Below the pieces are notes generated by a model. The model saw only the letters and a program-made list of their open reading frames with translations, did not search any database and was not told the origin of the DNA. DNA of 56,643 bases. Source: Candidatus Magnetaquicoccus inordinatus (GTDB lineage Bacteria; Pseudomonadota; Magnetococcia; Magnetococcales; Magnetaquicoccaceae). The stretch spans positions 1-56,643 of the forward strand of contig NZ_RXIU01000003.1 of NCBI RefSeq assembly GCF_004217665.1, written 5' to 3'. The translations under genes and the position numbers were made by a program. This document shows positions 5,731-56,643 of this stretch, one piece after another. The stretch's first letter is position 1, and the number at the start of each line of letters is the position of its first letter.

Positions 5731-5892
5731 CTCTTTTGGCTCTATTTTTGTACTTCAGGCAGAAAAAATAGAACTAAATTTATAAATTTCTACACAATTG
5801 TTGGTTGTAAAACATACCCCTTCTTGTTCCGCGCAACACGGCGAATCCATGGAAAAAACAGCAGGGCAAGCGCATTTGCCAATTTCTTCACT

Positions 5893-6080
5893 GTTGCCAC
5901 AAGCGAAACTGTGCATGTCGGGCGTCCGCCCTCCCGAAGAGTGCCCCTGCGGGGCACAAATCGGTGCGGCGTGCGCGAATGCTTAAGCATTCGCTTCTGG
6001 TGAAACGCCGCACATTTTCAGCAGGGCTTTGCCCTGCACCCACCAGGAGGAGATAATCTCCTCCTGGACCTCCATAATAA
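5893..6080 (+). repeat. Structured dispersed repeat, copy E1
   Basis: First copy of a multi-hairpin repeat family that recurs at 30330-30512 in the same orientation and at 47369-47521 inverted. Hairpins in order: GGGCG/CGCCC at 5920-5931; GTGCCCC/GGGGCAC at 5941-5957; an outer stem GTGCGGCGT (5964-5972) with ACGCCGCAC (6005-6013) enclosing GCGAATGC/GCATTCGC at 5975-5994; GCAGGGC/GCCCTGC at 6021-6037; and an 11-bp stem starting CCAGGAGGAGA at 6043-6067. It lies in the 567-bp gap between AMIN-TolC and the giant gene. The frames open across it are by-products of the palindromes. Confidence 0.85.
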
Positions 6081-6128
6081 TTTTCTGATTTTCAAATGCG
6101 CTTGCCCTGAAAAAAACAGCGAAATTTC

Positions 6129-29998: not shown

Positions 29999-30004
29999 GA
30001 ATTT

Positions 30005-30085
30005 GCTTTTAATCTTTTGCTTTTATCTTTTGCTTTTATCTTTTGCTTTTATCTTTTGCTTTTATCTTTTGCTTTTAATCTTTTT
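30005..30085 (+). repeat. 13-bp tandem repeat, about six copies
   Basis: Six consecutive copies of a GCTTTTATCTTTT-type 13-mer follow repeat E4. The first and last carry an extra A (TTAATC). The strand is extremely pyrimidine-rich. The period is not a multiple of three, so it is not a coding repeat. It is a candidate for slipped-strand length variation or transcript 3'-end formation behind the E4 hairpins. Confidence 0.85.
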
Positions 30086-30550: not shown

Positions 30551-32698
30551 ATGAGCTCGGCCCTCTTTTCCCACTCCTGGTATCGCGTCGCCTCACTCCA
30601 ACCACGCCTGCGTACCCAGGCACGTGTAGTACGCCACCTCTACCGCGGAGAACGCTGGTGGATCCTCCAGGATCGCGCCAGCGGCCACTTCCTGCGCCTC
30701 AACACAGTCGCTTACGGCGTGCTGGCCCTCTGCGACGGTAGACGTACCCTGGAAGAGATATGGCAGTTTCTCAGCAACCGCGACGGCGATAACGCACCTA
30801 CCCAAGACGAAATCCTGCAACTGCTCAACCAATTGCACCAGGCAAACCTCCTGCACAGCAATCGCCCCGCCGATTTGCAAGATCTGGGCGAACGCCGGGA
30901 AAATGTGCGCTGGCGGAAAATTAAACAATATATCAATAACCCACTCTCCTTCAAAATTGCCCTGTTTGACCCAGATCGCCTGCTGACTCTCCTCAGTCGC
31001 TTGCTGCCACGCCCCTGGTTGGGAGCTCTGCTACTGCTCTGGCTGATTCTGGTGGGATCGGGCATGCTGCAGGCAGCTCTACACTGGCAGGAACTGACTA
31101 ACGACCTGACCGCCCAAGTCTTTACCCCAGAAAATATGCTGCTGCTCTGGATGGCCTTCCCCATACTGAAAGCTGTCCATGAACTCGGTCACGGCCTGGC
31201 CGTTAAAATCCTGGGTGGCTCCTGCCACGAAACCGGCTTGATGTTTCTGGTTATGGTGCCCGTACCCTACGTCGATGTTTCCGACTCCACCGCACTCTCC
31301 AGCAAATATCAACGGATGCTGGTGGGCGCCGCAGGGATGATGGCAGAACTGTCAGTCGCCGCCGTGGCCGTCTGGCTGTGGAGCTGGAGTATGCCCGGTC
31401 CCGGTCGCGCCTTCCTCCATCAGGTGATCGTCTTGGCCGGTATGACTACCCTGCTCTTTAATATGAATCCACTGATTCGCTTCGACGGTTATTATATCTT
31501 TGCCGATTGGCTGGAAATACCTAACCTGGCACAAAAAGCCAATCGCTACTTAGGCTACCTGCTGCATCGCTACGCCTTTGGCAATACACTCACCTTTCCA
31601 CCACCAATGAGCAAAGGCGAAACCCCCTGGCTGCTCGGCTTTGCACTGGCCGCCTTTGTCTACCGCATCCTGCTCAGCATCGGTATCATCCTGCTGATTG
31701 CCGAAAGCTATTTTTTTATCGGTGTGCTCATGGCCCTGTGGGCGACCTGGTCCATGGTTCTGCTGCCAATCGCTAAACAACTCCATAATCTGCTCACCAA
31801 TAACGAACTGGAAGGCAAAGGAGTGCGCGTGACACTGGCACTCAGCCTGCTCGCCGGTAGCCTCCTGGGACCACTGCTCACTTGGCCAGTCGCCGATTGG
31901 ACCATGAGCGAAGGGGTGGTCTGGATGCCAGAAGAGTCCCGCTTGCGCGCTGCCGTCTCCTGCATGGGCGAACAGGTGCTGGTGCCTTCAGGAAGCCCGG
32001 TGGAAAAAGCAACCCCCCTGCTGCGTTGCAGCGACCCGGAACTGGCTGCACAAGTGGCACAACTGCAAGCCAAACAAGCCGAGATCGAAGCACGCCTGAG
32101 CCAGGCACAAAACGCAGATCGCGTGCAAAGACAGATTATTCAGACCGAGCTGGAACAGGCCAAAAGCCAACTCGAAGATGCCCAACAACGCCAAGAAAGC
32201 CTGATTGTACATAGCCCCCATGCCGGTACCTTTATTGTCCCAGAACCAGGAGATTATCCCGGTCGCTTTCTGCGGCGCGGTGACGTAGTGGCCTATCTGC
32301 TCGATCCAGCCCGCTTTACCCTGCTGACAGTGGTGCCACAAGGAGAGGTGGATCTGGTGCGACGACAAACCCGTGCCGTGGAGCTGCGCTCGGTCGATCG
32401 CGTCTGGGAGCTGATTCCCGCTACCATCGTCCGCGAAGTGCCTGCCGCAACCAATGAACTGCCCAGTATGGCCCTCTCCTTGGCCGGAGGTGGCACAATC
32501 GGCCTCGATCCTTCCGCACGCCAAGAGGCCAAAGCCATCACCTCCCTGTTTCACTTTGAATTGGCCTTTGCCGAACAAAAGGTGCCTACAGCCTTGGGCA
32601 ATCGGGTCTATGTCCGCTTTGTCCATCATGATCTGCCACTGGCCTGGCAATGGTATCGCGGCATCCGGCAAATGTTCCTGAAAAGGTTTGCTGTATGA
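30551..32698 (+). CDS. PqqD-like/M50 peptidase/HlyD fusion membrane protein
   Basis: A 715-residue polytopic inner-membrane protein. The ATG at 30551 is chosen because longer frames run through repeat E2. Residues about 10-105 resemble a PqqD-like winged-helix peptide-binding domain (RGERWWILQDRASGHFLRLN...LLNQLHQANLL). Residues about 150-450 are an M50 site-2-protease-like membrane domain with an intact zinc motif HELGH (His210, Glu211, His214) and the third ligand Asp312 in NPLIRFDGYY, followed by DWLEIPNL. Residues about 480-715 are an adaptor domain: lipoyl-like halves around a Gln/Glu-rich coiled coil (about 505-555) and VHSPHAGTFIVPEPGD. Similar fusions are usually annotated as YydH-type zinc metalloproteases. 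It overlaps the SecA-like gene by 4 bp. It may bind, process or gate an exported polypeptide while contacting the periplasmic conduit; that role is inferred. Confidence 0.85.
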   Translation: MSSALFSHSWYRVASLQPRLRTQARVVRHLYRGERWWILQDRASGHFLRLNTVAYGVLALCDGRRTLEEIWQFLSNRDGDNAPTQDEILQLLNQLHQANLLHSNRPADLQDLGERRENVRWRKIKQYINNPLSFKIALFDPDRLLTLLSRLLPRPWLGALLLLWLILVGSGMLQAALHWQELTNDLTAQVFTPENMLLLWMAFPILKAVHELGHGLAVKILGGSCHETGLMFLVMVPVPYVDVSDSTALSSKYQRMLVGAAGMMAELSVAAVAVWLWSWSMPGPGRAFLHQVIVLAGMTTLLFNMNPLIRFDGYYIFADWLEIPNLAQKANRYLGYLLHRYAFGNTLTFPPPMSKGETPWLLGFALAAFVYRILLSIGIILLIAESYFFIGVLMALWATWSMVLLPIAKQLHNLLTNNELEGKGVRVTLALSLLAGSLLGPLLTWPVADWTMSEGVVWMPEESRLRAAVSCMGEQVLVPSGSPVEKATPLLRCSDPELAAQVAQLQAKQAEIEARLSQAQNADRVQRQIIQTELEQAKSQLEDAQQRQESLIVHSPHAGTFIVPEPGDYPGRFLRRGDVVAYLLDPARFTLLTVVPQGEVDLVRRQTRAVELRSVDRVWELIPATIVREVPAATNELPSMALSLAGGGTIGLDPSARQEAKAITSLFHFELAFAEQKVPTALGNRVYVRFVHHDLPLAWQWYRGIRQMFLKRFAV

Positions 32699-34689
32699 AA
32701 CTCGCCCCAGCACAACTGCTCCTGGGTGATCTCTATCCCCAACGACGCCTCTGGCAAGAGCTGCCCTGGCTGGATCGCCTGGCCACTACCCTGCACCTGC
32801 GCTGGAGCCGACGCAAACATGCCTCAACCACCCAGCAAGATCAGTTTTTGGCAGAGGTGGCGGCAGCCGAACAACGCCTGCAAGCGCTGACCAAAGAAGA
32901 AGGTCAAAAATTTTTGGCAGAACTGCGCAGAAAGCTGCGCCAACACGGCTTTGTCGATGCAACCGTCGCCATGGCCTTCGCCTTTCTGCGCCAACAGGCC
33001 GGTGAACTGCTGGCTATGCGCCATTTTCCTACCCAAATGCGCGGCGGCTATTTGCTGCTGCACGGCTATGTGGTGGAGATGGATACCGGAGAAGGCAAAA
33101 CTCTTACCGCAACCCTGACCGCCGCCACCGCCGCTTTGGCCGGTCTGGCAGTGCATGTGGTGACAGTCAATGACTATCTGGCAGAACGCGACAGCCAACG
33201 CATGGCCCCCCTCTATAAAGCCTGCGGCCTCTCCACCGGAGTGATCCTGGAGAGCATGTCGCCGGAAGAAAAACAACAACAATATGCTGCCGATATTGTC
33301 TACTGCACCAACAAGACTCTGGTGTTTGACTATTTGCGCGACCGCTTGCAGATGGGTGACCACCTGCAACCCCTGTCCATGGCCATCAAACAGTTGACCC
33401 AACCCTCTGGAAGAGCACTGTTGCTGCGCGGCCTGCAATTTGCCATCGTCGATGAGGCGGACAGTATTTTTATTGATGAAGCACGTACACCACTGATTCT
33501 GGCCTCGGAACGCAGCAACCCACTGCTGGAAAGCTTCTATCGCCAGGCTATCAGCGTGGCACGACAGCTTCAGGCAGAAAGCGATTTTATCCTGGCAGGT
33601 CGCGACCCACAGTTGACACAGCATGGCCAAAGCCGTCTGCTGGAGATCAGCTCCACATGGGGTGGACTATGGAATGGTGCGCTGCGCGCGGAAGAGGTGG
33701 TCCGTTTGGCCCTCTCCGCACTGTATGGCTTCACCCGCGATGTCCACTATATCGTGCGCAACATGGACGGAGTGGCCAAAGTGATGATCGTCGATGAACA
33801 TACCGGACGGGTGATGCCCGATCGCTCCTGGGAGCGCGGCTTGCAACAGTTGATCGAGATAAAAGAAGATGTGCCACTTACCCCGGAAAAAGAGGTGCTC
33901 GCCCGCATCAGTTATCAACTCTTTTTTCGCCGCTATCTCTACCTCTCCGGCATGACCGGTACCTGCCGCGAAGTCAAAGAGGAGCTGGCCGATGTCTATG
34001 GCCTGGGTGTGATTCGCCTGCAACCCTACCGACCCTCCCGCCGTACTCTCCTGCCGACCCGCCTCTTCGCCACCGCCGAAGCACGCTGGCAGGCGGTGGT
34101 CGAGGCAGTGCGCCAGCGCGCCGCCCACGGACAAGCACTCTTGGTGGGCACCCGCTCCATTGCCGCCTCGGAACATCTGTCGGCACTTCTGCAAGCCGCA
34201 GATCTGCCCCATCGACTGCTCAACGCCAAACAGGATAAACTGGAAGCCGATCTGATTGCCGAAGCAGGCCGACCCGGTCAGGTGACCATCGCGACCAATA
34301 TGGCCGGACGCGGTACCGATATTCGCCCAGAAGAGAAGGTGCTGCAGGCGGGAGGATTGCATGTGATACTCACCGAAGGTCACGATAATGCACGTGTTGA
34401 TCGACAGTTGATCGGACGCTCAGCCCGCCAGGGCGACCCGGGAACCGCCGAATCGCTGTTGTCGCTGGAGGATGAATTGCTGCGGGAAAGAATGCCCACT
34501 GTCGGCGCAAAATTTGCTATACTACTGAAAGCGTATCCACAGAGTCGCCTGTTGCAAAGAGTGGCCGCCACTCTCTACCGTTTGGCACAATGGCATACCG
34601 AACGCGGACAACGGCGCATTCGCCGCCGCTTGCTGCAAGCCGATTTTCAAATGCGCCAGGCCCTTTCCTTTTCGGGAAAAATGGAATGA
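32695..34689 (+). CDS. Truncated SecA-like translocase ATPase
   Basis: A 664-residue SecA paralogue against about 900 for housekeeping SecA. It begins inside the M50 stop codon (ATGA overlap). The motor is intact: Walker A MDTGEGKTL (Lys135), VNDYLAERD, Walker B DEADSIFIDEARTPLI (Asp253-Asp256), SGMTGT, TIATNMAGRGTDI and the arginine-finger motif RQLIGRSARQGDPG (from Arg570). The insertion between RTPLI and the linker DEHTGRVMPDRSWERGLQQ is a shortened preprotein cross-linking domain. After motif VI only the first scaffold helix remains (to 664). The helical wing, two-helix finger and zinc-binding C-terminal tail are absent. In SecA the finger contacts the polypeptide entering SecYEG, so this protein probably does not work as a standard translocase. 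It is the only ATPase encoded among the export genes. Confidence 0.92.
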   Translation: MKLAPAQLLLGDLYPQRRLWQELPWLDRLATTLHLRWSRRKHASTTQQDQFLAEVAAAEQRLQALTKEEGQKFLAELRRKLRQHGFVDATVAMAFAFLRQQAGELLAMRHFPTQMRGGYLLLHGYVVEMDTGEGKTLTATLTAATAALAGLAVHVVTVNDYLAERDSQRMAPLYKACGLSTGVILESMSPEEKQQQYAADIVYCTNKTLVFDYLRDRLQMGDHLQPLSMAIKQLTQPSGRALLLRGLQFAIVDEADSIFIDEARTPLILASERSNPLLESFYRQAISVARQLQAESDFILAGRDPQLTQHGQSRLLEISSTWGGLWNGALRAEEVVRLALSALYGFTRDVHYIVRNMDGVAKVMIVDEHTGRVMPDRSWERGLQQLIEIKEDVPLTPEKEVLARISYQLFFRRYLYLSGMTGTCREVKEELADVYGLGVIRLQPYRPSRRTLLPTRLFATAEARWQAVVEAVRQRAAHGQALLVGTRSIAASEHLSALLQAADLPHRLLNAKQDKLEADLIAEAGRPGQVTIATNMAGRGTDIRPEEKVLQAGGLHVILTEGHDNARVDRQLIGRSARQGDPGTAESLLSLEDELLRERMPTVGAKFAILLKAYPQSRLLQRVAATLYRLAQWHTERGQRRIRRRLLQADFQMRQALSFSGKME

Positions 34690-35471
34690 AATTTTGGCTA
34701 CCTCTTTGTTTTTTCGGGATATACTGCATACTGCCCGCCGGGGCTGCCGAACGCAATCTGCCGCCACCCGCCCCGACACTGGCCGCCGTTAATAGTGTGC
34801 CTGCAGGCGAGGTCAGTTGCCTGATTGAGCCCTCGGTGGAGGTTAACGTAGGCAGCCCGGCAGATGGCAGCCTGGATGTGGTCCATGTGGATCGGGGGGA
34901 TATCGTCAATCGCGGCCAGCTTTTGGCCAAGTTGGATACGGCAGTTCAGGTTGCCGCTGCCAATGTTTTGGAGGCAAAAGCTGCCTATGGCTCGCGCAAA
35001 TATCGGCGCAATGAGGATCTGCAAAAGCAACAACTCATCTCCAGTCAGGAGCTGGATGAGATTGCCACCGAACAGCGCCTGGCAGAGCTGGAGCTCAAAG
35101 AGCGGCGGGAACAGATTTTATTGCGCAGCATTATCAGCCCGATCCGTGGGGTGATTGTCGATCGTTATCGCAACCGAGGCGATTTGGTCAAGCAGGAAAA
35201 GATCTTTCGTATCGCCCAACTGGATCCGCTGCATGTGGAGACGGTGGTGCCTGCCAGTTATTTTGGGCGGATCCACCTGGAACAGAGCTATGAGGTGACG
35301 CCTCAACTGGTGGGAGGCAAAATGAAAGCACGTGTTTCCACCATAGATCGGGTGATTGATGCGGCAAGCGGTACCTTTCGCGTGCGCCTGCTGTTGGCCA
35401 ATCCCCAATATGAACTGCCTCCGGGGCAGCGTTGCAGTGTCAACTTTAATCCGAACGGAACCAATCCATGA
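34686..35471 (+). CDS. RND/HlyD-type periplasmic adaptor
   Basis: A 261-residue periplasmic adaptor, starting by ATGA overlap with the SecA-like stop. The chosen ATG gives a signal peptide (MKFWLPLCFFGIYCILPAGA). The mature protein has the first barrel-sandwich half (VNVGSPADGSLDVVHVDRGDIVNRGQ...LAKLD), a short helical hairpin (about 85-140), the second half (SIISPIRGVIVDRYRNRGDLV) and a beta-barrel domain (LDPLHVETVVPASYFGRI...). It is shorter than typical adaptors (350-450) and has no inner-membrane anchor. It is the third adaptor-domain protein in the locus and overlaps tpsB downstream by 4 bp, linking the export genes and the two-partner secretion pair in one transcript. Confidence 0.85.
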   Translation: MKFWLPLCFFGIYCILPAGAAERNLPPPAPTLAAVNSVPAGEVSCLIEPSVEVNVGSPADGSLDVVHVDRGDIVNRGQLLAKLDTAVQVAAANVLEAKAAYGSRKYRRNEDLQKQQLISSQELDEIATEQRLAELELKERREQILLRSIISPIRGVIVDRYRNRGDLVKQEKIFRIAQLDPLHVETVVPASYFGRIHLEQSYEVTPQLVGGKMKARVSTIDRVIDAASGTFRVRLLLANPQYELPPGQRCSVNFNPNGTNP

Positions 35472-37507
35472 ATAAGATCGTCGCTCCCAGCGCTCGCTGC
35501 CACCGTCGTCAGGGGATGATTCTGACCGCTCTCTGTACCTCGACGCTGGTTGCCGTTGTCCAGGCAGCCGTTCCTCCTGAGGAGAGAGGTTCTGAGCCAC
35601 AGACGGTATTGGATCATCGTTCCGCACCCCCACGCAAAACCGTGATTCGTGCCGCCATGCCCAAGGCAGAGAGCTCTCTGACCAGTGTTAAACTGTCGAT
35701 CAAAGAGTTTCGCTTTGATGGAGTCTCCGAGGTGTCGGCAGATGCCATCGATGAGGTGTTGGCACCCTGGAAAGGGCGGGAGCTGCGCTTTCCAGAGTTT
35801 GAATTGGCGGTGCATGCGGTGGCCAACTATCTGCGCCAGCATGGTCATCCACAGGCCGAGGTCAAACTCTCACGCGCTTTGATCGGTGGCGGTACGGTGA
35901 TGGTGGCGATTCAAGGCTTGTCCAGCGAACCCACCGCTTTGGCCATGCGTCCCTCTGGCGAAGAGAGCATACCACGCATCGAGGTCAAAGAGTTCAAGGT
36001 GAGCGGCGCTACCTTGGCCAGCAAGGAGGAGTTTGACGCCCTGCTTGCCTCCAGCAGCGGCAAAGCCTTGTCCATGAAGGAGATTGAACAGGCTGCCGAG
36101 AGCGTGGCCAACCATCTGCGCAGCAAAGGGTACCCCCTGGTGCAAGCCTTTTTGCCTCCGCAACGTATCGATGAGGGGGTGGTGGAGATTGCCGTACAAG
36201 AGGGTGTGGTCGATGGTTCGGCAGGCAACAATGGCATGATCGTCGCCGGTGGCGGCGAACGGGTGAAACAGGAGGTGCTCGAAGAGATCTTGGCCAAGGG
36301 GGTCAAGGCCGGAGAGCCTCTGCGCATCGCCGATCTGGAACGGGCGGTGCTGTTGGCCAACGATACCCCCGGTATTCAATCGGTCAAAACCACCCTGGTG
36401 CCCGGCTCCGCACCCGGTTCGACCCAGGTAGAGGCCAAGGTTGAAGAGAGCGCGTTGGTCAGTGGCACCGTGTGGGCAGATAACTATGGCAGCCGCTATA
36501 CCGGTGCCAATCGCGTCAATGCCCAACTGAATCTCAACAGCCCCAGCGGCCATGGTGAACAGATCTCTGTCAATGCCGCCCACTCTACCGGCATGGAGAG
36601 CGGCAAGGTGGCCGTACAAGTGCCTGTCGGCGCCGATGGCCTGAAGGTGGGTGCCTCCTATTCGCAGATGAAACTGGATATTGGCGAAGAGGTGGCCCCG
36701 CTCAATCTCTCCAGCAATACCACAGTCGCCTCCGCCTATGCCAGCTATCCCCTGGAGCGCAGCAGTTCCCGCAACACCTGGATCTCGGCCAACCTGGATG
36801 CCAAACATGTCTCCAACGATCTTTCGGGAGTCCGCAATAACGATCGCAAGATCAATCTGCTGACACTGGGAGCCAGCGGCAATCTGGTCGATCCCCTGGA
36901 GGGTCAGGTGAGCTGGGGGGCCAATGTGGCCGGGGGTGCCCTCGATCTCTCCGGCAAAGCCTCCTATCAAGCGCTCGATGCCAGCTCCTCCCGTACCGAA
37001 GGAGATTTTGCCAAGGTAAACTGGAATCTGCAGCGCACCGCCAAGTTGACCGATGCCGTCTCCTGGCAGGTGGCCGCCTCCGGGATGGTCGCCTCAAAAA
37101 ATCTGGACAGCTCGGAAAAATTTCAGTTGGGTGGTCCAACCGGGGTGCGTGCCTATCCGGTGGGCGAAGGTTTGGGAGATTCGGGATGGTTGGGCAGCGC
37201 CGAAGTGCGCTACTCCTTGGGCCAAACCCCGGTGGGTGAGCCACAGATCTTTACCTTTTATGACCATGGCCAGATCACCCAATATCATACCCTGTGGAAC
37301 CATGCTTTAAGCGCCGGTCAACCCAACAGCTATTCTCTCTCTGGCTGGGGGGTGGGGGCCAGTCTGCTGCACAACGACAAGGAGAGTCTGCGTCTGATGT
37401 GGGCACAAAAAAGTGGCAACAATCCCAATCCCAGCAGTACCGGGAGCGACAGTGATGGCAGCAACAAGAGCGGACGGCTTTGGATCGTCGGCAATATTTT
37501 GTTCTAA
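35468..37507 (+). CDS. TpsB: ShlB/FhaC/HecB-family outer-membrane translocator with extra POTRA
   Basis: A 679-residue two-partner secretion translocator with an N-terminal signal peptide (to about residue 36). Three POTRA-like domains are visible: about 71-150 (KEFRFDGVSEVSADAID...VMVAIQGL), 173-255 (VKEFKVSGATL...FLPPQRIDEGVVEIAVQEGVV) and 265-327 (ERAVLLANDTPGIQSVKTTLVPGSAPGST). The second and third match the usual two POTRAs of FhaC; the first is additional. The 16-strand-type barrel follows, with the loop-6 motif GPTGVRAYPVGEG near residue 558. It recognises the TPS domain of the exoprotein encoded directly downstream and threads it across the outer membrane. Its 4-bp overlap with the adaptor gene is unusual for a two-partner pair. 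Confidence 0.92.
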   Translation: MNKIVAPSARCHRRQGMILTALCTSTLVAVVQAAVPPEERGSEPQTVLDHRSAPPRKTVIRAAMPKAESSLTSVKLSIKEFRFDGVSEVSADAIDEVLAPWKGRELRFPEFELAVHAVANYLRQHGHPQAEVKLSRALIGGGTVMVAIQGLSSEPTALAMRPSGEESIPRIEVKEFKVSGATLASKEEFDALLASSSGKALSMKEIEQAAESVANHLRSKGYPLVQAFLPPQRIDEGVVEIAVQEGVVDGSAGNNGMIVAGGGERVKQEVLEEILAKGVKAGEPLRIADLERAVLLANDTPGIQSVKTTLVPGSAPGSTQVEAKVEESALVSGTVWADNYGSRYTGANRVNAQLNLNSPSGHGEQISVNAAHSTGMESGKVAVQVPVGADGLKVGASYSQMKLDIGEEVAPLNLSSNTTVASAYASYPLERSSSRNTWISANLDAKHVSNDLSGVRNNDRKINLLTLGASGNLVDPLEGQVSWGANVAGGALDLSGKASYQALDASSSRTEGDFAKVNWNLQRTAKLTDAVSWQVAASGMVASKNLDSSEKFQLGGPTGVRAYPVGEGLGDSGWLGSAEVRYSLGQTPVGEPQIFTFYDHGQITQYHTLWNHALSAGQPNSYSLSGWGVGASLLHNDKESLRLMWAQKSGNNPNPSSTGSDSDGSNKSGRLWIVGNILF

Positions 37508-48558: not shown

Positions 48559-49407
48559 TTGTCTAGAAGATTTTTTGCCCGTGGAGAGAGTCTGTTGCAC
48601 AGCAGCAAGCCCAGCCCAGTTCCTGCCGATTTGATGCCGTTGATGCGGGTGGCGGAGTTCGACCAAGTGACTGATATGCTCAAAGATGCGGTCAGCCAGG
48701 GATTGGCACCCTCTTGGCAGGAGACGCGCGACGGCTCTTTTGCCAGAAAAGTCCAGAAGGGTTGTCTTTGGTCCCGGTGTACCTATTTTTATGCTGGTCA
48801 GGCCGATTCCCATTATGGCAATCTGTTGTTTGTCTATTGGCCAGCAATGGAGAAGGGAAAAGAGGGAGAGGCGTCGCCTTATGACAGCGGGGGAGTCTAT
48901 CGCGGCAAGTGTGATCCCTTTCGCGGGATGAGTGATACCGATTGGCCCTCTCCGAATGCGGTCGCTTTTCTCAAAAGCACTGCCTATGCTTTGTCCGACT
49001 GGCGGGAGTATTTTGCCTACTATCTGGATGAATATTTTGTACAGGATTGGCAGCGCTATTGTCTTGGCCAACCGCCCTCTGCCAATCCCACTCCTTTGTC
49101 TTGTTGGGAGAGTTTGCCGGCGCGATTCTCCAGCAACTTTTCTCCAAAAGTTGATTGGCCCTCCTGGAGTTGGGAGGTGCGTGTGCGTGGAAAGATTCCG
49201 CTTGCCGAAGGGTTGTTCTTTTGGTCAGCCGTGCGCACTACCATGGATACCCTGGGGGATATGTTGTTGGATGATCCCTATGGAGCAGGAGCGCTATTGG
49301 AGGGTCTGTTTAGTTCAGAGCATACGGTTGCAGATACAGCCGCGGAGATGGTTGATGCGGGCAGAAAACGGAGCATAGAGTGGGTGACACAGCAGCTCAA
49401 TCCTTGA
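48559..49407 (+). CDS. Unrecognised 282-aa protein, first gene of KGGVGR operon
   Basis: A 282-residue soluble protein I do not recognise. It is rich in Trp, Tyr and Asp, with no signal peptide or membrane helix. The TTG at 48559 is preceded by GGGGG at 8 bases; the first ATG (48634) has no ribosome-binding site, and the frame is open from 48457. Conserved-looking stretches include WSRCTYFYAGQADSHYGNLLFVYWPAM, SPYDSGGVYRGKCDPFRGMSD and VDWPSWSWEVRVRGKIPL; the YDSGGVYRG and RVRG pieces suggest a compact enzyme-like core with a loop rich in Gly and charged residues. Its end overlaps the next gene by 28 bp, implying translational coupling and shared function. The context (KGGVGR ATPase, mobile DNA nearby) suggests an effector or its regulator; this is inference only. 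Confidence 0.65.
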   Translation: MSRRFFARGESLLHSSKPSPVPADLMPLMRVAEFDQVTDMLKDAVSQGLAPSWQETRDGSFARKVQKGCLWSRCTYFYAGQADSHYGNLLFVYWPAMEKGKEGEASPYDSGGVYRGKCDPFRGMSDTDWPSPNAVAFLKSTAYALSDWREYFAYYLDEYFVQDWQRYCLGQPPSANPTPLSCWESLPARFSSNFSPKVDWPSWSWEVRVRGKIPLAEGLFFWSAVRTTMDTLGDMLLDDPYGAGALLEGLFSSEHTVADTAAEMVDAGRKRSIEWVTQQLNP

Positions 49408-50354
49408 CGCAGAATGCTGAGACAGCAGGGCAATCCTTGCACCAGGAACGGTTGCTGGTGGTAGCCATTAACGGTCATATACCTGGTCAGTGTGGTCTGG
49501 TGGAGTTGGTGGTGCAAAAGCAGAGTGAGCCAGGATATTTCTACTTGCTTGATCCTCGTAAGGGTCTGCAGAATTGTATTGACCGGGAGAGGTTGCAGCA
49601 GTTGGCAGATGAAAAGAGGGTGCGCCTGTTGGCTGAGCCCAGAGAGGTTGCTCCGACGGCTTGCGCCCTGTTTGCCAGGCACGATTTTTTGCAGGCCTAT
49701 GAATCGGGATGCAAAGCCCCCTTTCCCTGGGGTGGGGAGAGTCCCATTGCGTTGTCGCCAGAGGGGGATTCTCTGCTGATTGCCGATGAGCAAACTCTGC
49801 GGGCACTGCGTCGTGGTGCCGCAGAGCGCTTGTTGAAAGTTGTGCAAGAGCGTATTGCCTACGAATTGAAGAGCGACTGGCATCAGGAGTTTTTTCCGAA
49901 TATGGAAAAATGGTGTCGTTGTGGGGCATTGTGTGTCGGTTCATCCAGGGGAGATCCTCTCTATTTATCTTTTCATCAACATCTGGCTACACTCCTGTTT
50001 CTCAAAGGGGATAATGATCGTCAGTTGCTGGCTTTCAAACAATTGGTGCAACCTCACTTTCCTGCTCTTTCTTATGATGAATTTGCCGCTACTGCACGCA
50101 CATGGGCCAAAAATTGGCAAGAACAGAGTGATTTGTTTTTCCGTGAGACGAGCAGGAGAAAAACGGAGTCCATTATTCAATCGCTTTCTGCTCTGACAGA
50201 CCGTTCTGTTGTAGATGTTTACCCTCAGGGAGCACGCTCAGGCCAAGCAGCCGAAAATAATCGAATACACCACCAAAATGCTTCTGCCTCTATAGTGTTG
50301 GCGGGTCGTGGACCAGCAGAAGCCGATCCACCTTCCCTTAATTCCATTAACTAG
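49380..50354 (+). CDS. Unrecognised 324-aa protein, second gene of KGGVGR operon
   Basis: A 324-residue protein of unknown family, beginning with GTG inside the end of the previous gene (28-bp overlap). No signal peptide or membrane helix is seen. Residues about 24-75 form a beta-rich domain (LLVVAINGHIPGQCGLVELVV, GYFYLLDPRKGLQ); about 130-285 are helical (RRGAAERLLKVVQERIAYELKSDWHQEFFP ... ATARTWAKNWQ). A CRCGALC cluster (near residue 180) could bind metal or be incidental. The C-terminal 60 residues look disordered. It ends 14 bp before the KGGVGR ATPase. It is likely an essential partner of both neighbours, but no reaction can be assigned. Confidence 0.6.
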   Translation: MGDTAAQSLTQNAETAGQSLHQERLLVVAINGHIPGQCGLVELVVQKQSEPGYFYLLDPRKGLQNCIDRERLQQLADEKRVRLLAEPREVAPTACALFARHDFLQAYESGCKAPFPWGGESPIALSPEGDSLLIADEQTLRALRRGAAERLLKVVQERIAYELKSDWHQEFFPNMEKWCRCGALCVGSSRGDPLYLSFHQHLATLLFLKGDNDRQLLAFKQLVQPHFPALSYDEFAATARTWAKNWQEQSDLFFRETSRRKTESIIQSLSALTDRSVVDVYPQGARSGQAAENNRIHHQNASASIVLAGRGPAEADPPSLNSIN

Positions 50355-50368
50355 TCGCTCAGGAAACC

Positions 50369-53300
50369 ATGGAGATTATCGCCTTTTATTCCTTCAAGGG
50401 GGGCGTAGGTCGCACGGCATTGCTGACCAATCTGGCCGCCTATTGGGCTTCGCTGGGGCGGGTGGTTGGGTTGGTGGATATGGATCTGGCGGCACCAGGG
50501 TTGAGTTATTCACCGCTCTTGGATCCAAAAAGCCTGCTCAATCCAGAGTTTAGCCATGTTGGTTTCAGTGATCTGTTGGCGGCCTATTATAATGGTCGCG
50601 ATGACAAGGATGGGCTGGGCTATTTTGAACCGGATATTCTCTTTCATGAACTCAACCCGCCGCCGGAGCCCAATCCGCCCTACCAGAAAAGATTTTGGGG
50701 AAATCATGGCCGGGTATTGGTGATTCCGGCAGGTCAGGTGCATTTTCGTTATCCGCCGGTTTATGAGTTGCAGCCATTGCCCTTTCCGCCCAAAGGCGGG
50801 CGCCCAAATGAGAGCATGGATGCCATGACCTTGCGCGCTTTTGCCAAGCTGTTTCGCGAGGATATGCAGAAGTTTCGACTGCCAAAAGCTGCCGATAAAC
50901 CGGAACAGGCTGCCCGTGGTCTGGATTATCTGTTGATCGATTGTCGCACCGGATTTCCTGAACTTTTGGATCTGGTATTGGGCTATCTGGCCGATCGCAT
51001 GATCCTGGTCTCCGGTTTGAATGAACAAAATCTGGTTGGTCTGGAGCTTACTCTGCGGCAGTTGCGGGCAGAACGGGTGGAGGAGGGCAACTATGCCCGT
51101 GATCTCATGGTGGTCTTTTCACCCGTACCGGTCCATCTGTATGATGATCCCGCCGCTATCGCCGTCCTGAAACAGGGCAAAAGGGTGGTGGAAAGCCATT
51201 GCAGAGAAAAGCCGGGCTATCAACGCGAAGAGCCTCCCAAAATTTTTACCTTGCCCTATACCCCCCGTCTGGCGCTCTCTGACCTTCCCTTGACCTTTGA
51301 AACCCTGGAGCATCCCTACAGCCGGGTGATTGTGGAGATTGCCGAATCTTTGGCCCCCCCCTCTTTGGAAAGACAGATTGCCAAGGTGAGCGAGCAGTTG
51401 CAGCGCACCGGGGTAACCATCGCAGAAAAAAGCACAGCCCCCGCCGAGGAGTTGCGTTCGGGGCAAAGATCGGAGCTGCCGGAGAGACCAGCCTTTTCTG
51501 CTGGTCCGCCCGCTGTTTTTGCTGCTGCTCCCGCTGCCGATCTGCTGCGGCTTCCTTCCTGGCATTGGCCGTTTACCATTTCTGCCCCCAATCAGGAGCA
51601 ACGGATTCGTCAAGAGCGGGATCGTCTGTTGCCCGCACGCAGCGGTTTGACCGATATGGTACGAGACGCCTTTCTCGATGCCCTTTCGGGAACCCTCTCC
51701 CTGGACAAAAAGGGCAAGCTGCAGCTTCTTTCTGCCTATCCCGATCTGCCCAGAGAGCGCATTTCAGAGCAGCTCGAACTGTTTATGGCCGAACGGCAGG
51801 ATTGGCCTGCCCTGCCTGCCGGGGAGCAGGAGGCGTTGTTTGAAAAACAGTATCAATGCCGCAAAGAGTGGGCCGATCTGCTCCTGCAACCGCCGGGCGA
51901 GGGGCTGAGACAATTTTTGTTGCAACCGCTGCAGAATGGGCAGGCGCTTTTTTCGAGCTGGCAGGAGCATGCGCCCTATTGGTTTTTATTGGCCAGGGAT
52001 CTCAGAAAAGAGCTGAACCGTAAAAACGAAGCCTGGCAGGCCATCGCACAAGGCTTGCGTGTGCCTCCAGACAGGTCAGCGATGATCGAACTATTGGACT
52101 TGTTGGATAGCCAAGATCAGGAATGGAATAGAGCGCTTTTGCAGCGAGCCAGCGAGTGGGTTGTTGCGGATCAGTGGTTGCAGTTTGAGGTGTTAACAAG
52201 AGAGGTAAAACCTAGTCGTGAGCGCATTGAAGAGGTTTTGGAACCTCTGTTACAAGGAAAACCGCCAAAGGATCCATGGCTCAGTTTACAATTTGCACAT
52301 TGGATTATGAATAATTATGATTTGATGGCCATACGGGTGGAACCTTTTTTGCGTTATTCTGTGGAAAAATTATCTTCAAATGATAATGTTTTATTTTTGT
52401 GGGGTGAGTTGCTTTTCGTTTACCTGGGTCGATTTGCAGAGGCTGAAACTGTTTACGGGGAGTCAATTGAACGTAATACATCCTGGAGCTCGCCTTGGAG
52501 TCGTTTGGGAGATCTGTTGCAGGCCACAGGAAGATGTGAGGAAGCAAAAGTGGCCGCCCTAAAGGCAATTGATTTGAGTGAGAAAGATGCTTATGTTCAG
52601 TCAACTCTAGGAAGTATTTATGCACGCTGCTTCAGGAATTATGAAGAGGCAGAGGCGGCCTATCGCCAAGCTGTCGGTCTAGAGAATAATAATAATTGGT
52701 ACAAGCTTCTTTTGGGTTATTTTCTTACTTTTTACCGTCAGCGTTGTCAGGAAGCTCTAGAGATATTACAGCTTCACTCGCCAGAGGATGATTCCCATGG
52801 TACCGGCCATGTTTTGCTCTATCGCGGTTTGGTGCTATTGATTTTGGGGCAGACAGAAGCAGGAAACGCCTGTTTGACAAAAGCAGGAGATAGATTTTAT
52901 CATGAAGGATCAATATATAGTGTTTTCCATTATACCAGAATCACATTAATATTATCTCCTGAGGCAATATCTCTTCTCCCCATACACCATGCCATTCTGA
53001 ACACCTGGCGGAAAAACGCACCGCAATTTTATTATCTGCAAATGACCGAAGCGTTGCTGGAATTGGCAGAAAGCGGCCGTTGGCCTGCAGACAGGATACA
53101 AAAATATTTGCTTTTGTTTGAAGAGTTTACATCTGCCATCCAGATTCTCTATGAAATAGGCGGGCAACGCCCGGATCTGCGGCAGACCACTCGTGCGGGT
53201 GTGGCTGCTCTGTTGGCCGATTATCCGCAACTGCGTCAACGTCTCAAAGGTGCCGCCCCTCCTGAAGATCTGATAGAACGTTTTCGCCCCTTTGCCGAGG

Positions 53301-53371
53301 GCAGGAGCGATGGTTTGGGAGATCCGCGTGATCGTGCTCTGTTTTGTAAGGAGTCAGCAGCGGAGGAATAG
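50369..53371 (+). CDS. KGGVGR-variant ParA-like ATPase with TPR-like C-terminus
   Basis: A 1000-residue protein. Residues 1-330 are a ParA/MinD-like P-loop ATPase in which the deviant Walker A reads KGGVGRTA (Lys10 to Thr16), the hallmark of the KGGVGR variant. The switch DMDLAAPG (38-45) and Walker B-like LLIDCRTG (about 190) are also present. About 340-640 is an alpha-helical linker; about 650-900 resembles TPR repeats (AETVYGESIERN, EEAKVAALKAIDLSEKDAYV, EEAEAAYRQAVGLE), with further helices to the end. KGGVGR ATPases have been described in comparative genomics as parts of NTP-dependent bacterial conflict systems, where they are thought to sense or assemble effectors. AGGA precedes the start. 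The stretch encoding the TPR part (about 52200-53150) is clearly richer in A+T than the N-terminal half, suggesting domain replacement. Confidence 0.85.
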   Translation: MEIIAFYSFKGGVGRTALLTNLAAYWASLGRVVGLVDMDLAAPGLSYSPLLDPKSLLNPEFSHVGFSDLLAAYYNGRDDKDGLGYFEPDILFHELNPPPEPNPPYQKRFWGNHGRVLVIPAGQVHFRYPPVYELQPLPFPPKGGRPNESMDAMTLRAFAKLFREDMQKFRLPKAADKPEQAARGLDYLLIDCRTGFPELLDLVLGYLADRMILVSGLNEQNLVGLELTLRQLRAERVEEGNYARDLMVVFSPVPVHLYDDPAAIAVLKQGKRVVESHCREKPGYQREEPPKIFTLPYTPRLALSDLPLTFETLEHPYSRVIVEIAESLAPPSLERQIAKVSEQLQRTGVTIAEKSTAPAEELRSGQRSELPERPAFSAGPPAVFAAAPAADLLRLPSWHWPFTISAPNQEQRIRQERDRLLPARSGLTDMVRDAFLDALSGTLSLDKKGKLQLLSAYPDLPRERISEQLELFMAERQDWPALPAGEQEALFEKQYQCRKEWADLLLQPPGEGLRQFLLQPLQNGQALFSSWQEHAPYWFLLARDLRKELNRKNEAWQAIAQGLRVPPDRSAMIELLDLLDSQDQEWNRALLQRASEWVVADQWLQFEVLTREVKPSRERIEEVLEPLLQGKPPKDPWLSLQFAHWIMNNYDLMAIRVEPFLRYSVEKLSSNDNVLFLWGELLFVYLGRFAEAETVYGESIERNTSWSSPWSRLGDLLQATGRCEEAKVAALKAIDLSEKDAYVQSTLGSIYARCFRNYEEAEAAYRQAVGLENNNNWYKLLLGYFLTFYRQRCQEALEILQLHSPEDDSHGTGHVLLYRGLVLLILGQTEAGNACLTKAGDRFYHEGSIYSVFHYTRITLILSPEAISLLPIHHAILNTWRKNAPQFYYLQMTEALLELAESGRWPADRIQKYLLLFEEFTSAIQILYEIGGQRPDLRQTTRAGVAALLADYPQLRQRLKGAAPPEDLIERFRPFAEGRSDGLGDPRDRALFCKESAAEE

Positions 53372-53374
53372 CCA

Positions 53375-53433
53375 TTCTGCAGGCGCCCAGGCAGAGGCTT
53401 GCGGTGGGCTATTGCAGAAAAAATGCGCCTGCA
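53375..53433 (+). terminator. Alternative hairpins after the KGGVGR gene
   Basis: A perfect 9-bp stem TGCAGGCGC (53378-53386)/GCGCCTGCA (53425-53433) competes with TTCTGCA (53375-53381)/TGCAGAA (53413-53419). The sequence after it is AT-rich but lacks a uridine run, so termination is plausible and not certain. Confidence 0.35.
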
Positions 53434-53530
53434 TTTACAATATATGTTAAAACATACAGTAAAACACTATCTTATCCAAAACAACTGCTGAAGTGCTTCA
53501 TGTTCCAATAACTCCATGGAATCGTTAATA

Positions 53531-53573
53531 TCATGATCATCTATTACTCCAACCTATAGAAAGGTGATCATGA
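53531..53573 (+). promoter_or_regulatory. Inverted repeat over the start of the small mobile-element gene
   Basis: TCATGATCA (53531-53539) pairs perfectly with TGATCATGA (53565-53573), which includes the start codon of the small gene at 53570 and the end of its AAAGGTGAT ribosome-binding site. As RNA, a hairpin would hide the start; as DNA, it could be a repressor operator. Confidence 0.45.
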
Positions 53574-53860
53574 ATTACAAAAACAAATATAACACACCCC
53601 TCATCCATCGGCCTCTGAACCTGCTGCCACCTGCTCCGGGAGGGGGAGGCAACAGGGATTGTTGGCGGCTGGCCAATGGTCTGGTCGAGGGTTGCGCCAT
53701 GTGGCGGCAAGCTGCATTTTTGGTGCAGGGGGCGGTTGCGGGGTGCGGTTGTTGTGCTTTTGCCGACAGCCCCTGCCGACAAAAATTGCCAGGAGAGTGG
53801 GCCCTGCCCAGAGAGCATAGGATGGGAAGAGGTCGCAGCGCTGCAGGAGGCAAGCCATGA
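53570..53860 (+). CDS. Small unknown protein coupled to DUF927 gene
   Basis: A 96-residue frame that I do not recognise. In its favour are an AAGG ribosome-binding site 5 bases before the ATG and an ATGA overlap with the DUF927 gene, the arrangement expected of a translated leader gene in a mobile element. The N-terminal 20 residues are Asn/Lys/Tyr-rich, the rest is Gly, Arg and Cys-rich (six Cys, with a CGCC cluster), and no domain is evident. It could be a regulatory or decayed protein. A frame read in the opposite strand (53575-54069) is open too, so coding is not proven. Confidence 0.4.
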   Translation: MNYKNKYNTPLIHRPLNLLPPAPGGGGNRDCWRLANGLVEGCAMWRQAAFLVQGAVAGCGCCAFADSPCRQKLPGEWALPREHRMGRGRSAAGGKP

Positions 53861-55629
53861 ACAGCCACGCTACTGTCGGGGGTGACCCTACCCCTTTGGG
53901 GAGGCCGCAAGAGCGGCAAGCGCCTCTGCAACGACCCTGCTATCGTGTCTATGAGGAGGAGCAGGCTGGCAGAGCGGCAGGGCTCTATTATCATGGTTTC
54001 AAAGAGAGCGAGTCCAGACAAACGCCGGTCGATCTTTTTGTGTGTGGGCCGTTGTATGTGGAGGCGCAACTGAGTGAACTGTCAGGTCTCTCATTTTGTC
54101 GCTTGTTGCGCTTTCGCGACACCACCGGGGTCTGGAAGAGTTATGTCATGCCGATGACCCTCTTGAGTGATCGTGGCGAACAGTTGCGGGCGCAATTGCT
54201 GGATCGTGGCCTGCTGATTGATCTGCACAATCGGGCGCATCTGCAGAGCTATCTGCAAAGCCAGATTCCAAGCAAAAGTCTGAGTCTGGCCAAGCAGGTG
54301 GGCTGGCATCAGCAGAGTTTTGTGTTGCCTGATGAGATCTTTGGCGACCCGGATATCTATTTTCAGGGCAGCCATGGCGCCGCGCAACTCTATGCCTGTT
54401 CCGGCTCGCTGTCGGGTTGGCAAAAGGAGATAGCAACCTATTGTCAGGGCAATCCACTGCTGCTGTTTGCGGTTTCGGCGGCCTTTGCGGGAGTTTTATT
54501 GCGGGCGGTGGGTCGGGATGGTTTTGGTTTTCATTTTGTCGGCGACTCTTCGACCGGCAAAACCACAGCGTTGCGGGTAGCGGCTTCGGTGTGGGGAGGT
54601 CAGGAGTTTCAGCGCAGTTGGCGCGCCACTGGCAATGGTTTGGAGGCGGCGGCAGCACAATTCAATGATGGGCTGATGGTTCTGGATGAGATTGCCGAGG
54701 TCAATCCGCGGGAAGCGGGGAGTATCATCTATGCGCTTTCCAATGGGCGCGGCAAGCAGCGTGCCGATCGACACGGGGAGGCCAAGGAGTTGAGTCGCTG
54801 GCGGGTATTGCTCTTGTCTTCTGGCGAGCGGATGCTGGCTACCTATCTGTCCGATGTGCGCATGGAGCAGCGTGCCGGTCAGGAGGTACGTTTGTTGGAT
54901 GTGCATTGCCATCGGCGCTATGGCATGTTTGATGAGCTGCATGGAATGGCTTCTGGCCGGGAGTTGGCCGATCATCTGCGCGGTGCGGTCAAACGGCATC
55001 ATGGCGAGGCAGGACGGGCCTTTTTACGGGCGTTGCTGGGCTGCAAAGCCGATTGGCCCGCGTTGTATCGTTATGTTTATGAGCGGGGCTGGTCGGAGTT
55101 TGTTTTGCAAGACGGCCTGGAGCAGAGGGCGGCGCAATCGTTTGCCTTGGTGGCGATGGCTGGCGAGTTGGCGACACAGGATTTTGAGCTCTGCGGATGG
55201 GAGCCGGGTGCTGCGTTGCAGGCGGCGGTGACGGTGTACAAAATCTGGCTCAGCAATCGCGGTCGCGGCAACAGTGAGAGCAAGTCGATAATCAGCAAAG
55301 TGTTGGAATTTTTGGATCTGCATGGTGACAGCCGTTTTTCAGCGCTGCAGGGTTCCGATGAGGCGGTACGCAACCGGGCAGGTTGGTATAAGAGTGTCGC
55401 CACTGCCGATGGTGGCAGCGAGCGGCATTTTTTATTTACCTCTGCGGGTTTGCGCGAGGCGCTTGCCGGTTTTGATTTTCGCCGGGCGCTGGCTGTTTTG
55501 GAGCAGAGTCAACTGCTGGTGTGTGCCGATCGTGAGAACAGGCGGGAACGAGCGGATATCTATCGAGTGGGTGGACGTTTGGTGCGTCTCTATACGGTGG
55601 TGCCGAAAGATCTGCACTGTGAGCTGTGA
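53857..55629 (+). CDS. DUF927-family helicase-like ATPase of a mobile element
   Basis: A 590-residue protein of the DUF927 family, found in phages, satellites and integrative elements and probably acting as a replicative helicase. AGGAGG 7 bases upstream supports the ATG at 53857. Residues about 60-190 precede the ATPase (LAKQVGWHQQSFVLPDEIFG is the typical family entry). Walker A is GDSSTGKT (229-236) and Walker B is LMVLDEIAEV (from about 273), followed by the typical ALSNGRGKQRADRHG and WRVLLLSSGE sensor. The C-terminal 150 residues form a DNA-binding-like tail (KVLEFLDLHGDSRFSAL...). No primase or integrase is seen in the window, so the element is partial, decayed or extends beyond the right edge. 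Confidence 0.85.
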   Translation: MNSHATVGGDPTPLGRPQERQAPLQRPCYRVYEEEQAGRAAGLYYHGFKESESRQTPVDLFVCGPLYVEAQLSELSGLSFCRLLRFRDTTGVWKSYVMPMTLLSDRGEQLRAQLLDRGLLIDLHNRAHLQSYLQSQIPSKSLSLAKQVGWHQQSFVLPDEIFGDPDIYFQGSHGAAQLYACSGSLSGWQKEIATYCQGNPLLLFAVSAAFAGVLLRAVGRDGFGFHFVGDSSTGKTTALRVAASVWGGQEFQRSWRATGNGLEAAAAQFNDGLMVLDEIAEVNPREAGSIIYALSNGRGKQRADRHGEAKELSRWRVLLLSSGERMLATYLSDVRMEQRAGQEVRLLDVHCHRRYGMFDELHGMASGRELADHLRGAVKRHHGEAGRAFLRALLGCKADWPALYRYVYERGWSEFVLQDGLEQRAAQSFALVAMAGELATQDFELCGWEPGAALQAAVTVYKIWLSNRGRGNSESKSIISKVLEFLDLHGDSRFSALQGSDEAVRNRAGWYKSVATADGGSERHFLFTSAGLREALAGFDFRRALAVLEQSQLLVCADRENRRERADIYRVGGRLVRLYTVVPKDLHCEL

Positions 55630-55642
55630 GAGATTTGAGGGT

Positions 55643-55730
55643 GTTACGTGTTACGTGAGCAGTCACGGTTTGCGTAACAAAAAAGTCTAACAAAAACCTA
55701 TATGTTACACATGTTATGTGTGTTACGTAT
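55643..55730. repeat. Clustered GTTAC motifs (possible iterons)
   Basis: Within 88 bp downstream of the DUF927 stop, GTTACGT occurs twice with a 7-bp period (55643 and 55650), GTAAC occurs inverted (55672-55678), and three 9-bp direct repeats beginning GTTA(C/T) follow at 55704, 55713 and 55722. Arrays like this beside a helicase gene resemble replication-origin iterons of satellite elements; a transcription regulator site is the alternative. Confidence 0.5.
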
Positions 55731-55734
55731 ATAT

Positions 55735-56643
55735 AGGGCCTCCTCAAAAAGAATAACGCATTGAAACTATACATTAAAATTCGATTATGATAGAATTGTG
55801 TGCATGAATTTCGGCCAAAACAGCCAAAAAGGCGTGCACCTGATGATTCGAGAACGCGACAAAAAGCAGCTTACCTTGCCCGGATTTGAGAGTCCGTTTG
55901 AACGAGGTCTTGATCCGAATAACCGGTGGGTCAAACTGGCAGGGTTGGTTCCCTGGGGTGAGTTTGCGAAGGCATACTACAGCGGCATGAGTGCCGACCA
56001 GGGCACACCAGCCAAACCGGCCCGTTTAATGGTCGGTGCAGTGATCATCAAGCACCGCCAGCGATGGACTGACGAAGAGACTGTTCTGCAGATTCAGGAG
56101 AACCCGTATCTTCAATTCTTTTGCGGTTTTTCCGGCTTCACCCTGGAGCAACCGTTTGCACCTTCTTTGTTTGTCGAGATTCGCAAACGCATGGGCGCGA
56201 CGGTATATGAACAGTTTGAGCAGTCTGTTGCAACGAAGCTATCAGAAATCTTGAAAAAGAAGGACAAAAAGGCGAAACAGCCAGATCGCTCAGACAGAGA
56301 TTCTTCGGAGTCAGGAGATGGATCGACCGAGAGAAAAGCTGCCATTGAGACTGCTGAAACCATTGAACAGACTGGCAAGATCAATGAAATGACGGATGAG
56401 ACAGAAACTTCGGATGCCAAAGATCAGCTTGATAAAGCAAAAGAAACAGTTGGAGAGGAGCCAGAAGCCAAGCCATCCGGCAAGTTGGTCATTGATGCCA
56501 CCGTAGCCGAGCAGGCCATTCGCTATCCGACCGATCTTGGACTGCTCAATGAGGCTCGGGAAGTCAGTGAACGACTGATTGACCGGTTGTTTCCGTTGTC
56601 AGGTTTAGCAAAAAAACCGCGTACATACCGGCTGAAGGCACGT
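55735..56643 (+). mobile_element. Left part of an IS5-type insertion sequence (cut by window end)
   Basis: The transposase gene at 55804 runs to the window end. The element probably starts near 55735-55745 (GGGCCTCCTC), just after the GTTAC array and a TATATATA run; the exact inverted repeat cannot be fixed because the right end is missing. A candidate promoter lies at 55761 (TTGAAA) and 55786 (TATGAT), with a long 19-bp spacer. Confidence 0.5.
55804..56643 (+). CDS. IS5-family (DUF772/DDE) transposase, 3' truncated by window
   Basis: Open for 280 codons to the window edge. The N-terminal DUF772-type domain is clear: LDPNNRWVKLAGLVPWGEFAKAY, GTPAKPARLMVGAVIIKHR and ENPYLQFFCGFSGF, all typical of this transposase group. 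Then comes a long charged linker (about residues 145-215, rich in Lys, Glu, Ser and Asp). The catalytic DDE core begins with LVIDATVAEQAIRYPTDLGLLNEARE, which holds the first catalytic Asp. A second ATG at 55843 (MIRERDK) is an alternative start. The gene lies directly downstream of the mobile-element helicase, so the IS probably interrupts that element. Whether the 3' end is intact is unknown. Confidence 0.85.
   Translation, partial: MNFGQNSQKGVHLMIRERDKKQLTLPGFESPFERGLDPNNRWVKLAGLVPWGEFAKAYYSGMSADQGTPAKPARLMVGAVIIKHRQRWTDEETVLQIQENPYLQFFCGFSGFTLEQPFAPSLFVEIRKRMGATVYEQFEQSVATKLSEILKKKDKKAKQPDRSDRDSSESGDGSTERKAAIETAETIEQTGKINEMTDETETSDAKDQLDKAKETVGEEPEAKPSGKLVIDATVAEQAIRYPTDLGLLNEAREVSERLIDRLFPLSGLAKKPRTYRLKAR

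What the first reader, a model, noticed from the sequence alone, without database searches (positions are those of the whole stretch)
55643..55730. GTTAC iteron-like array behind the DUF927 helicase
Six GTTAC/GTAAC-type motifs with 7- and 9-bp periods are packed in 88 bp, ending at a TATATATA run. A helicase gene next to direct repeats and an AT-rich stretch is the arrangement of a satellite or plasmid origin.
Basis: partly seen in the sequence, partly recalled or inferred. Interest (0 to 1): 0.5.

Follow-up and report, generated by a model that had tools for sequence, protein, structure and literature searches.

The report
Half a satellite replication origin, interrupted
The cluster of short repeats beside a helicase gene looks like one half of the start site from which a phage-satellite-like DNA element copies itself, cut off on its far side by a jumping gene; the kind is known, but sister copies without such a helicase gene beside them in the same genome are unexpected.

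Summary
Six GTTAC/GTAAC-type sites lie at 55642, 55649, 55673, 55703, 55712 and 55721, starting 12 bp after the stop codon of an open DUF927 gene. TATATATA ends at 55735; an insertion sequence begins at 55736. Homologous DUF927 genes often carry arrays in the same place, each with its own 7-9 bp motif. In 45 of 107 loci the sites fit one layout (two sites, about 23 bp, one inverted site, about 32 bp, three sites) against 2 of 2140 random placements; 60 of 107 show no such module in a wider scan. The window fits it. The protein's best structural matches are the SCCmec Cch helicase and SaPIbov1 Rep; SaPI Rep is reported to bind iterons directly downstream of its gene. I read this as the rep-proximal half of a PICI/SaPI-type iteron origin whose AT-rich centre took an IS. 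No integrase or primase was found among the 13 window proteins scanned, so it is probably a remnant. The genome holds two sister elements (two half-arrays around an AT tract) without an adjacent DUF927 gene in the sequence held; between them 9 of 11 sites changed the same base. Known kind, new member; binding and replication are untested.

The parts
53857..55629 (+). DUF927 gene, 590 aa, proposed replication initiator helicase (rep); Walker A GDSSTGKT read by eye
   Evidence: ORF; Pfam DUF927 E 1.7e-87; PDB profile hits 8tch 2e-36 and 5dgk 1.2e-26; model pLDDT 92, best Foldseek hits 5dgk and 8tch
55642..55655 (-). iteron doublet: TGTTACG at 55642 and 55649, 7 bp apart
55673..55679 (+). single inverted iteron CGTAACA, 24 bp after the second site
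55703..55727 (-). iteron triplet: TGTTACA 55703, TGTTATG 55712, TGTTACG 55721, 9 bp apart
   Evidence: 0 of 20000 shuffles give the six-site chain
55674..55735 (.). AT-rich stretch (74% A+T; window 45%) ending in TATATATA 55728-55735, proposed edge of the melting region
   Evidence: longer AT tracts at the same place in sister elements C4 and C168
55736..56643 (+). left part of an insertion sequence with a DUF772 transposase gene, cut by the contig end

Best explanation
The array is the rep-proximal half of an iteron-type replication origin of a PICI/SaPI-like mobile element, and the DUF927 gene in front of it encodes the initiator that reads it. Shown here by sequence: six sites of one motif in a 2-1-3 layout, in the place and layout found beside many DUF927 genes; a protein related to Cch and SaPIbov1 Rep; an AT tract after the triplet; an IS at the edge of that tract. 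Inferred: the protein's C-terminal domain binds each CGTAACA-type site; the sites place a helicase ring beside the AT tract; the ring melts the tract, loads and unwinds the element. A second, mirror-image half-array would lie beyond the AT tract, as in C4 and C168 of the same genome; in the window the IS separates or replaces it. The origin is therefore probably inactive, and gene plus half-origin probably a remnant.
For: Array 12 bp after the stop. Same layout in 45 of 107 DUF927 loci against 2 of 2140 random placements; modules at the two ends of rep and none in its body, permuted motifs 3 of 533. Diverged motifs keep the skeleton G-N-N-A-C in 47 of 59 significant arrays against 6.8% of 542 control stretches. 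Structure and sequence: Cch and SaPIbov1 Rep. Reported mechanism: SaPI Rep reads downstream iterons with its C-terminal domain (PMC7581432); Gram-negative PICI origins have two iteron sets around an AT-rich region 3' of rep (PMC6092414). Sister elements with one-way change at 9 of 11 sites.
Against: 60 of 107 loci show no six-site module. Covariation between motif and C-terminal domain is weak: rho 0.18, Mantel p 0.017, partial p 0.066 after allowing for the DUF927 domain, whose own rho is 0.16. The window's generic repeat score is not above controls. Only one half-array is present and no integrase or primase was found in the proteins scanned. Plasmid pTAO100 has DUF927 without an array. Template ranges were set after seeing the data.
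Confidence: 0.85

Rival explanations
1. The sites bind the DUF927 protein or another regulator, but as an operator or incompatibility array that controls rep or a lost downstream gene, not as an origin.
For: One C168 half-array lies upstream of a reverse-strand 119-aa gene, and the orphan elements have no adjacent DUF927 gene.
Against: Most window-like modules lie after the rep stop codon, not before a promoter; halves flank AT tracts in C4 and C168; known relatives use this place as origin.
Confidence: 0.1
2. Chance cluster or low-complexity sequence.
For: Over 600 bp the window's generic repeat score is not above controls.
Against: 1 of 5000 shuffles for the count; 0 of 20000 for the layout; recurring layout in 45 of 107 loci.
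Confidence: 0.01
3. The repeats belong to the insertion sequence next to them (subterminal transposase sites).
For: They abut the IS end.
Against: The five other copies of the IS end match from 55736 or a few bases before it, not across the array; C168 and C4 have the array without the IS.
Confidence: 0.01

Closest known systems
Replication module of phage-inducible chromosomal islands (SaPI and Gram-negative PICI): rep followed by ori
   Same: Initiator helicase related to SaPIbov1 Rep; iterons immediately 3' of the gene next to an AT-rich stretch, as described in PMC6092414 (passages).
   Different: Only one iteron set is present, with an IS beyond it; no integrase or primase among the 13 window proteins scanned; layout 2-1-3 (gaps 7, 24, 30, 9, 9), while the PT1028 record has 3-1-2 (gaps 9, 11, 24, 43, 9).
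SCCmec helicases Cch and Cch2
   Same: Cch contains DUF927 (PMC7581432) and is the best structural match; Cch2 binds direct repeats downstream of its own gene (same paper).
   Different: The downstream binding was shown for Cch2, of another helicase family, with AAGTG iterons.
Satellite phage P4 origin and crr with alpha protein
   Same: Six short type-1 repeats in a 3-1-2 arrangement at the origin, and more repeats downstream of alpha; motif GGTGAACA resembles the others in its ACA end.
   Different: Different spacing (10, 11, 22, 43, 10) and origin 2.1 kb beyond the start of alpha; alpha is a primase-helicase of 777 aa, the window protein has no primase domain hit.

Membership tests
PICI/SaPI-type rep-ori module | initiator helicase related to SaPI Rep | tested here: met
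   8tch E 2e-36 by profile; Foldseek E 2.7e-21, TM 0.58/0.68, 15% identity
PICI/SaPI-type rep-ori module | short repeated sites immediately 3' of rep | tested here: met
   first site 12 bp after the stop; 0 of 20000 shuffles give the chain
PICI/SaPI-type rep-ori module | two iteron sets flanking an AT-rich region | tested here: not met
   one set, the edge of an AT tract, then an IS and the contig end; the far side cannot be seen. C4 and C168 of the same genome have both sets
PICI/SaPI-type rep-ori module | rep-dependent autonomous replication | not testable with these tools
   needs a bench test
complete PICI | integrase, AlpA/xis and primase genes beside rep | tested here: not met
   none among 13 window proteins scanned with Pfam or PHROGs; other window ORFs and the sequence beyond the contig end were not scanned
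P4 replication system | alpha-type primase-helicase and P4 spacing of origin repeats (10, 11, 22, 43, 10) | tested here: not met
   window gaps 7, 24, 30, 9, 9 in the order 2-1-3; no primase domain hit

The most novel reading that the evidence does not exclude
The genome holds rep-less satellite origins (C4 and C168) that were kept under selection after they parted: nine of eleven sites changed the same base, all in one direction, so a protein of changed specificity read them. They could be non-autonomous replicons copied in trans, C168 by the window's Rep (same CGTAACA motif), or decoys that tie up an incoming satellite's initiator. More widely, DUF927 replicons would share one mirror-symmetric six-site module, whose 5' half lies inside the rep reading frame in 19 of 107 loci.
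Probability: 0.15. Interest if true: 0.6.

Novelty: new member of a known kind. Interest (0 to 1): 0.42.

Why it matters
It turns a repeat cluster beside a domain of unknown function into a testable initiator-origin pair, and gives a simple layout (2-1-3 sites with a 9-bp triplet) by which DUF927 origins may be found in raw sequence. Diverged motifs on one layout offer a natural series for asking how an initiator changes its DNA specificity. The sister arrays without a helicase gene raise the question whether satellites leave origins behind that still matter.

Tried and rejected
A genome-contig scan with the window protein alone found no relative; the scan with alignment A1 found 536 and kept the best 80, so the set leans to the closest relatives. 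Covariation of motif with the C-terminal domain was too weak to count as proof. The peptide ending before the C168 right array was compared with plasmids: best E 2, nothing learned. Another initiator that could own the orphan arrays: of the two families sought in the genome (DUF927; D5_N), one D5_N protein was found on C138, with no GTTAC array beside it. An empty site for the C4 element: two same-genus genomes keep the end of the GGDEF gene, but the rest of the query there does not align, so no insertion boundary was obtained. The far side of the IS: all five contigs with the IS end stop inside it. The array in relatives: of 48 genomes, outside the window's own only short matches with E 0.09 or more for the window array, and E 0.0017 and 0.02 over 19-26 bases for the C4 element. 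The triplet pattern occurs 3 times in the genome, but so does its reversed control, so the count alone is no evidence; the surrounding arrays are.

My six-site template missed both C168 halves and C4's left half; those were read by eye from the site lists. Of eight annotated records, two match the template, seven have a repeated motif, and pTAO100 has none. Loci L049-L060 (duplicates, fragments and one further relative, G045) were not analysed, and L156 was dropped for lack of downstream sequence. The G011 gene (L047) lies in two pieces, and one search printed the wrong strand for it.

Full report
What is there. The DUF927 gene runs from 53857 to 55629 on the + strand (Pfam E 1.7e-87). Twelve bases after its stop the first of six sites begins. 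On the strand that reads CGTAACA the sites are 55642(-), 55649(-), 55673(+), 55703(-), 55712(-), 55721(-), with start-to-start gaps of 7, 24, 30, 9 and 9 bp. Four are exact CGTAACA; the others are TGTAACA and CATAACA. The count of GTTAC/GTAAC words was reached in 1 of 5000 shuffles. The stretch 55674-55735 is 74% A+T against 45% for the window. TATATATA fills 55728-55735 and an insertion sequence starts at 55736: its end recurs on five other contigs, and its gene carries the transposase domain DUF772. The window's contig ends inside the IS.

Homologous genes. The window's genome has one DUF927 gene; 10 of 48 genomes of its class have a match. I collected 108 loci: the window, seven class relatives, 20 viral contigs and the best 80 of 536 genome-contig relatives. 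One had no downstream sequence, which leaves 107. Over the 600 bp after the stop, repeated 8-mers exceed the 95% level of 1657 control stretches in 43 of 107 loci and the 99% level in 23; upstream of the open frame the figure at 95% is 7 of 98. The window does not exceed this level; the IS fills most of its 600 bp. The commonest 7-mer differs from locus to locus (TGGGCAA, GGGGACA, GGTGACA, CGTTACA, CGTAACA and so on), but in 47 of 59 arrays above the 95% level it has the skeleton G-N-N-A-C on one strand, against 6.8% of 542 control stretches. In the 48 loci below that level the figure is 21. The window is among these (5.9 against 6.5). Some of the highest control stretches carry the same words, so they probably include second arrays of these elements.

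Layout. The site lists showed a recurring order: two sites, 22-24 bp, one inverted site, 31-33 bp, three sites 9 bp apart; or its mirror image. Written as a template with ranges it is met in 45 of 107 loci, the window included, against 2 of 2140 random placements of the same sites. The ranges were chosen after seeing the data, so this speaks against chance but is not an independent test. In a wider scan 44 of 107 loci have a module after the stop, 19 have the mirror module 1.7-1.9 kb before the stop, none has one in between, and permuted motifs gave 3 of 533. Of the 107, 16 have the mirror half before and the 2-1-3 half after, 13 have only a 2-1-3 half after the stop (the window is one), 12 have both halves after the stop, 3 have only a 3-1-2 half there, 3 only an upstream half, and 60 none. 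The 19 upstream halves all lie inside the open reading frame of rep, 18 of them after an in-frame ATG: there, half the array is written in the start of the rep coding sequence. The window's gene has no such half: only three one-mismatch sites, far apart, lie in 53300-55629. Of 20000 shuffles of the window array none gives the chain.

The protein. A profile of seven homologues finds 8tch (2e-36, named as the SaPIbov1 initiator) and the Cch helicase 5dgk (1.2e-26) among solved structures. The predicted structure is confident (mean pLDDT 92, pTM 0.84), and its best Foldseek matches are again 5dgk and 8tch, at 15-17% identity, followed by MCM helicases. Passages of PMC7581432 state that SaPI Rep recognises, with its C-terminal domain, an iteron origin directly downstream of its gene, and that Cch contains DUF927. 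Passages of PMC6092414 state that PICI origins lie immediately 3' of the initiator gene, with two iteron sets flanking an AT-rich region in the E. coli PICIs mapped, and that a cloned rep-ori segment supported plasmid maintenance.

Comparison records. P4's annotated type-1 repeats at its origin have the order 3-1-2 with gaps 10, 11, 22, 43, 10. Staphylococcus phage PT1028 has 3-1-2 with gaps 9, 11, 24, 43, 9, then an AT-rich tract. Of eight records examined after the rep or alpha gene, phiAH14b and a Legionella fallonii plasmid match the template; a Photobacterium plasmid has triplets on both sides of an AT-rich stretch; pMNOD05, a Klebsiella aerogenes plasmid, PT1028 and P4 have repeats that do not match it; pTAO100 has DUF927 without an array and carries a RepM gene. 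The window's order and spacing are thus those of the DUF927 loci in my set rather than of P4 or PT1028.

Sister elements. A blast of the array found one further copy in the genome, on C168. The pattern of three TAAC words 9 bp apart led to another on C4 (the reversed control pattern also has three matches, so the count means nothing by itself). C4 shows a half-array, an AT tract and a mirror half-array between a GGDEF gene and a Transposase_31/DUF4351 gene. C168 shows the same with a dispersed repeat of about 247 bp between the halves. No DUF927 gene lies beside either in the sequence held, but C168's contig ends 215 bp past its array. Aligned, nine of eleven sites have A in C168 and T in C4 at the same motif position; the other two have T in both, and these two are weak sites whose place or orientation I took from the layout. 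Identity is 129 of 168 outside the sites and 59 of 77 inside. Such a one-way change at nearly all sites is what a shift in the specificity of a binding protein would leave. C168 and the window share one variant.

Reading. The window holds an initiator gene with the near half of its origin and the edge of the AT tract; an IS has entered there. Binding, melting and loading are inferred from relatives, not shown. No integrase or primase was found among the 13 window proteins scanned, and the second half is not in view, so a remnant is likelier than a live element. The covariation test, which could have tied motif to protein directly, was too weak (rho 0.18, Mantel p 0.017, partial p 0.066). My searches listed no paper whose title or abstract start describes a six-site layout of DUF927 origins; I read only passages of five papers, so this is not a claim that it is unpublished. 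One of them (PMC8263062) shows that a phage nuclease can target the iterons of a satellite origin and that satellites escape by changing them, a possible reason for diverse motifs.

Noticed in passing
G000 C4 (L201 9004-9262) and C168 (L008 16373-16880): Two origin-like elements (half-array, AT tract, mirror half-array) with no DUF927 gene beside them in the sequence held; 9 of 11 sites differ by the same base between them.
   Followed up: partly
window 5862-6109 (-); L008 about 16502-16747; many other contigs: A dispersed repeat of about 247 bp, 42 places listed in the genome with 40 of 230 first-look candidates scored; one copy sits between the two C168 half-arrays.
   Followed up: no
L066, L081, L083, L086, L089, L094, L100, L103, L137, L148 and nine others: Half of the iteron array lies inside the start of the rep coding sequence, in mirror image to the half after the stop codon (19 of 107 loci).
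   Followed up: partly
L214 (G000 C138) about 2496-2590: A D5_N helicase gene whose last 130 bases hold three GACA words 8 bp apart and, further on, three TGTC words 8 bp apart: perhaps a second kind of satellite origin with its own motif.
   Followed up: no
window 6187-28071 and 32650-37507: A 7294-aa open frame, and a SecA-like protein of 679 aa encoded between HlyD- and ShlB-type secretion genes.
   Followed up: no
window 48559-53371: Three genes in a row, the last a 1000-aa protein with an N-terminal ParA/MinD-type ATPase (sequence KGGVGRT) and TPR repeats; the other two had no Pfam or PHROGs hit.
   Followed up: no
window 30002-30084: Tandem array of 6.2 copies of a 13-bp unit, TTTGCTTTTATCT.
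   Followed up: no
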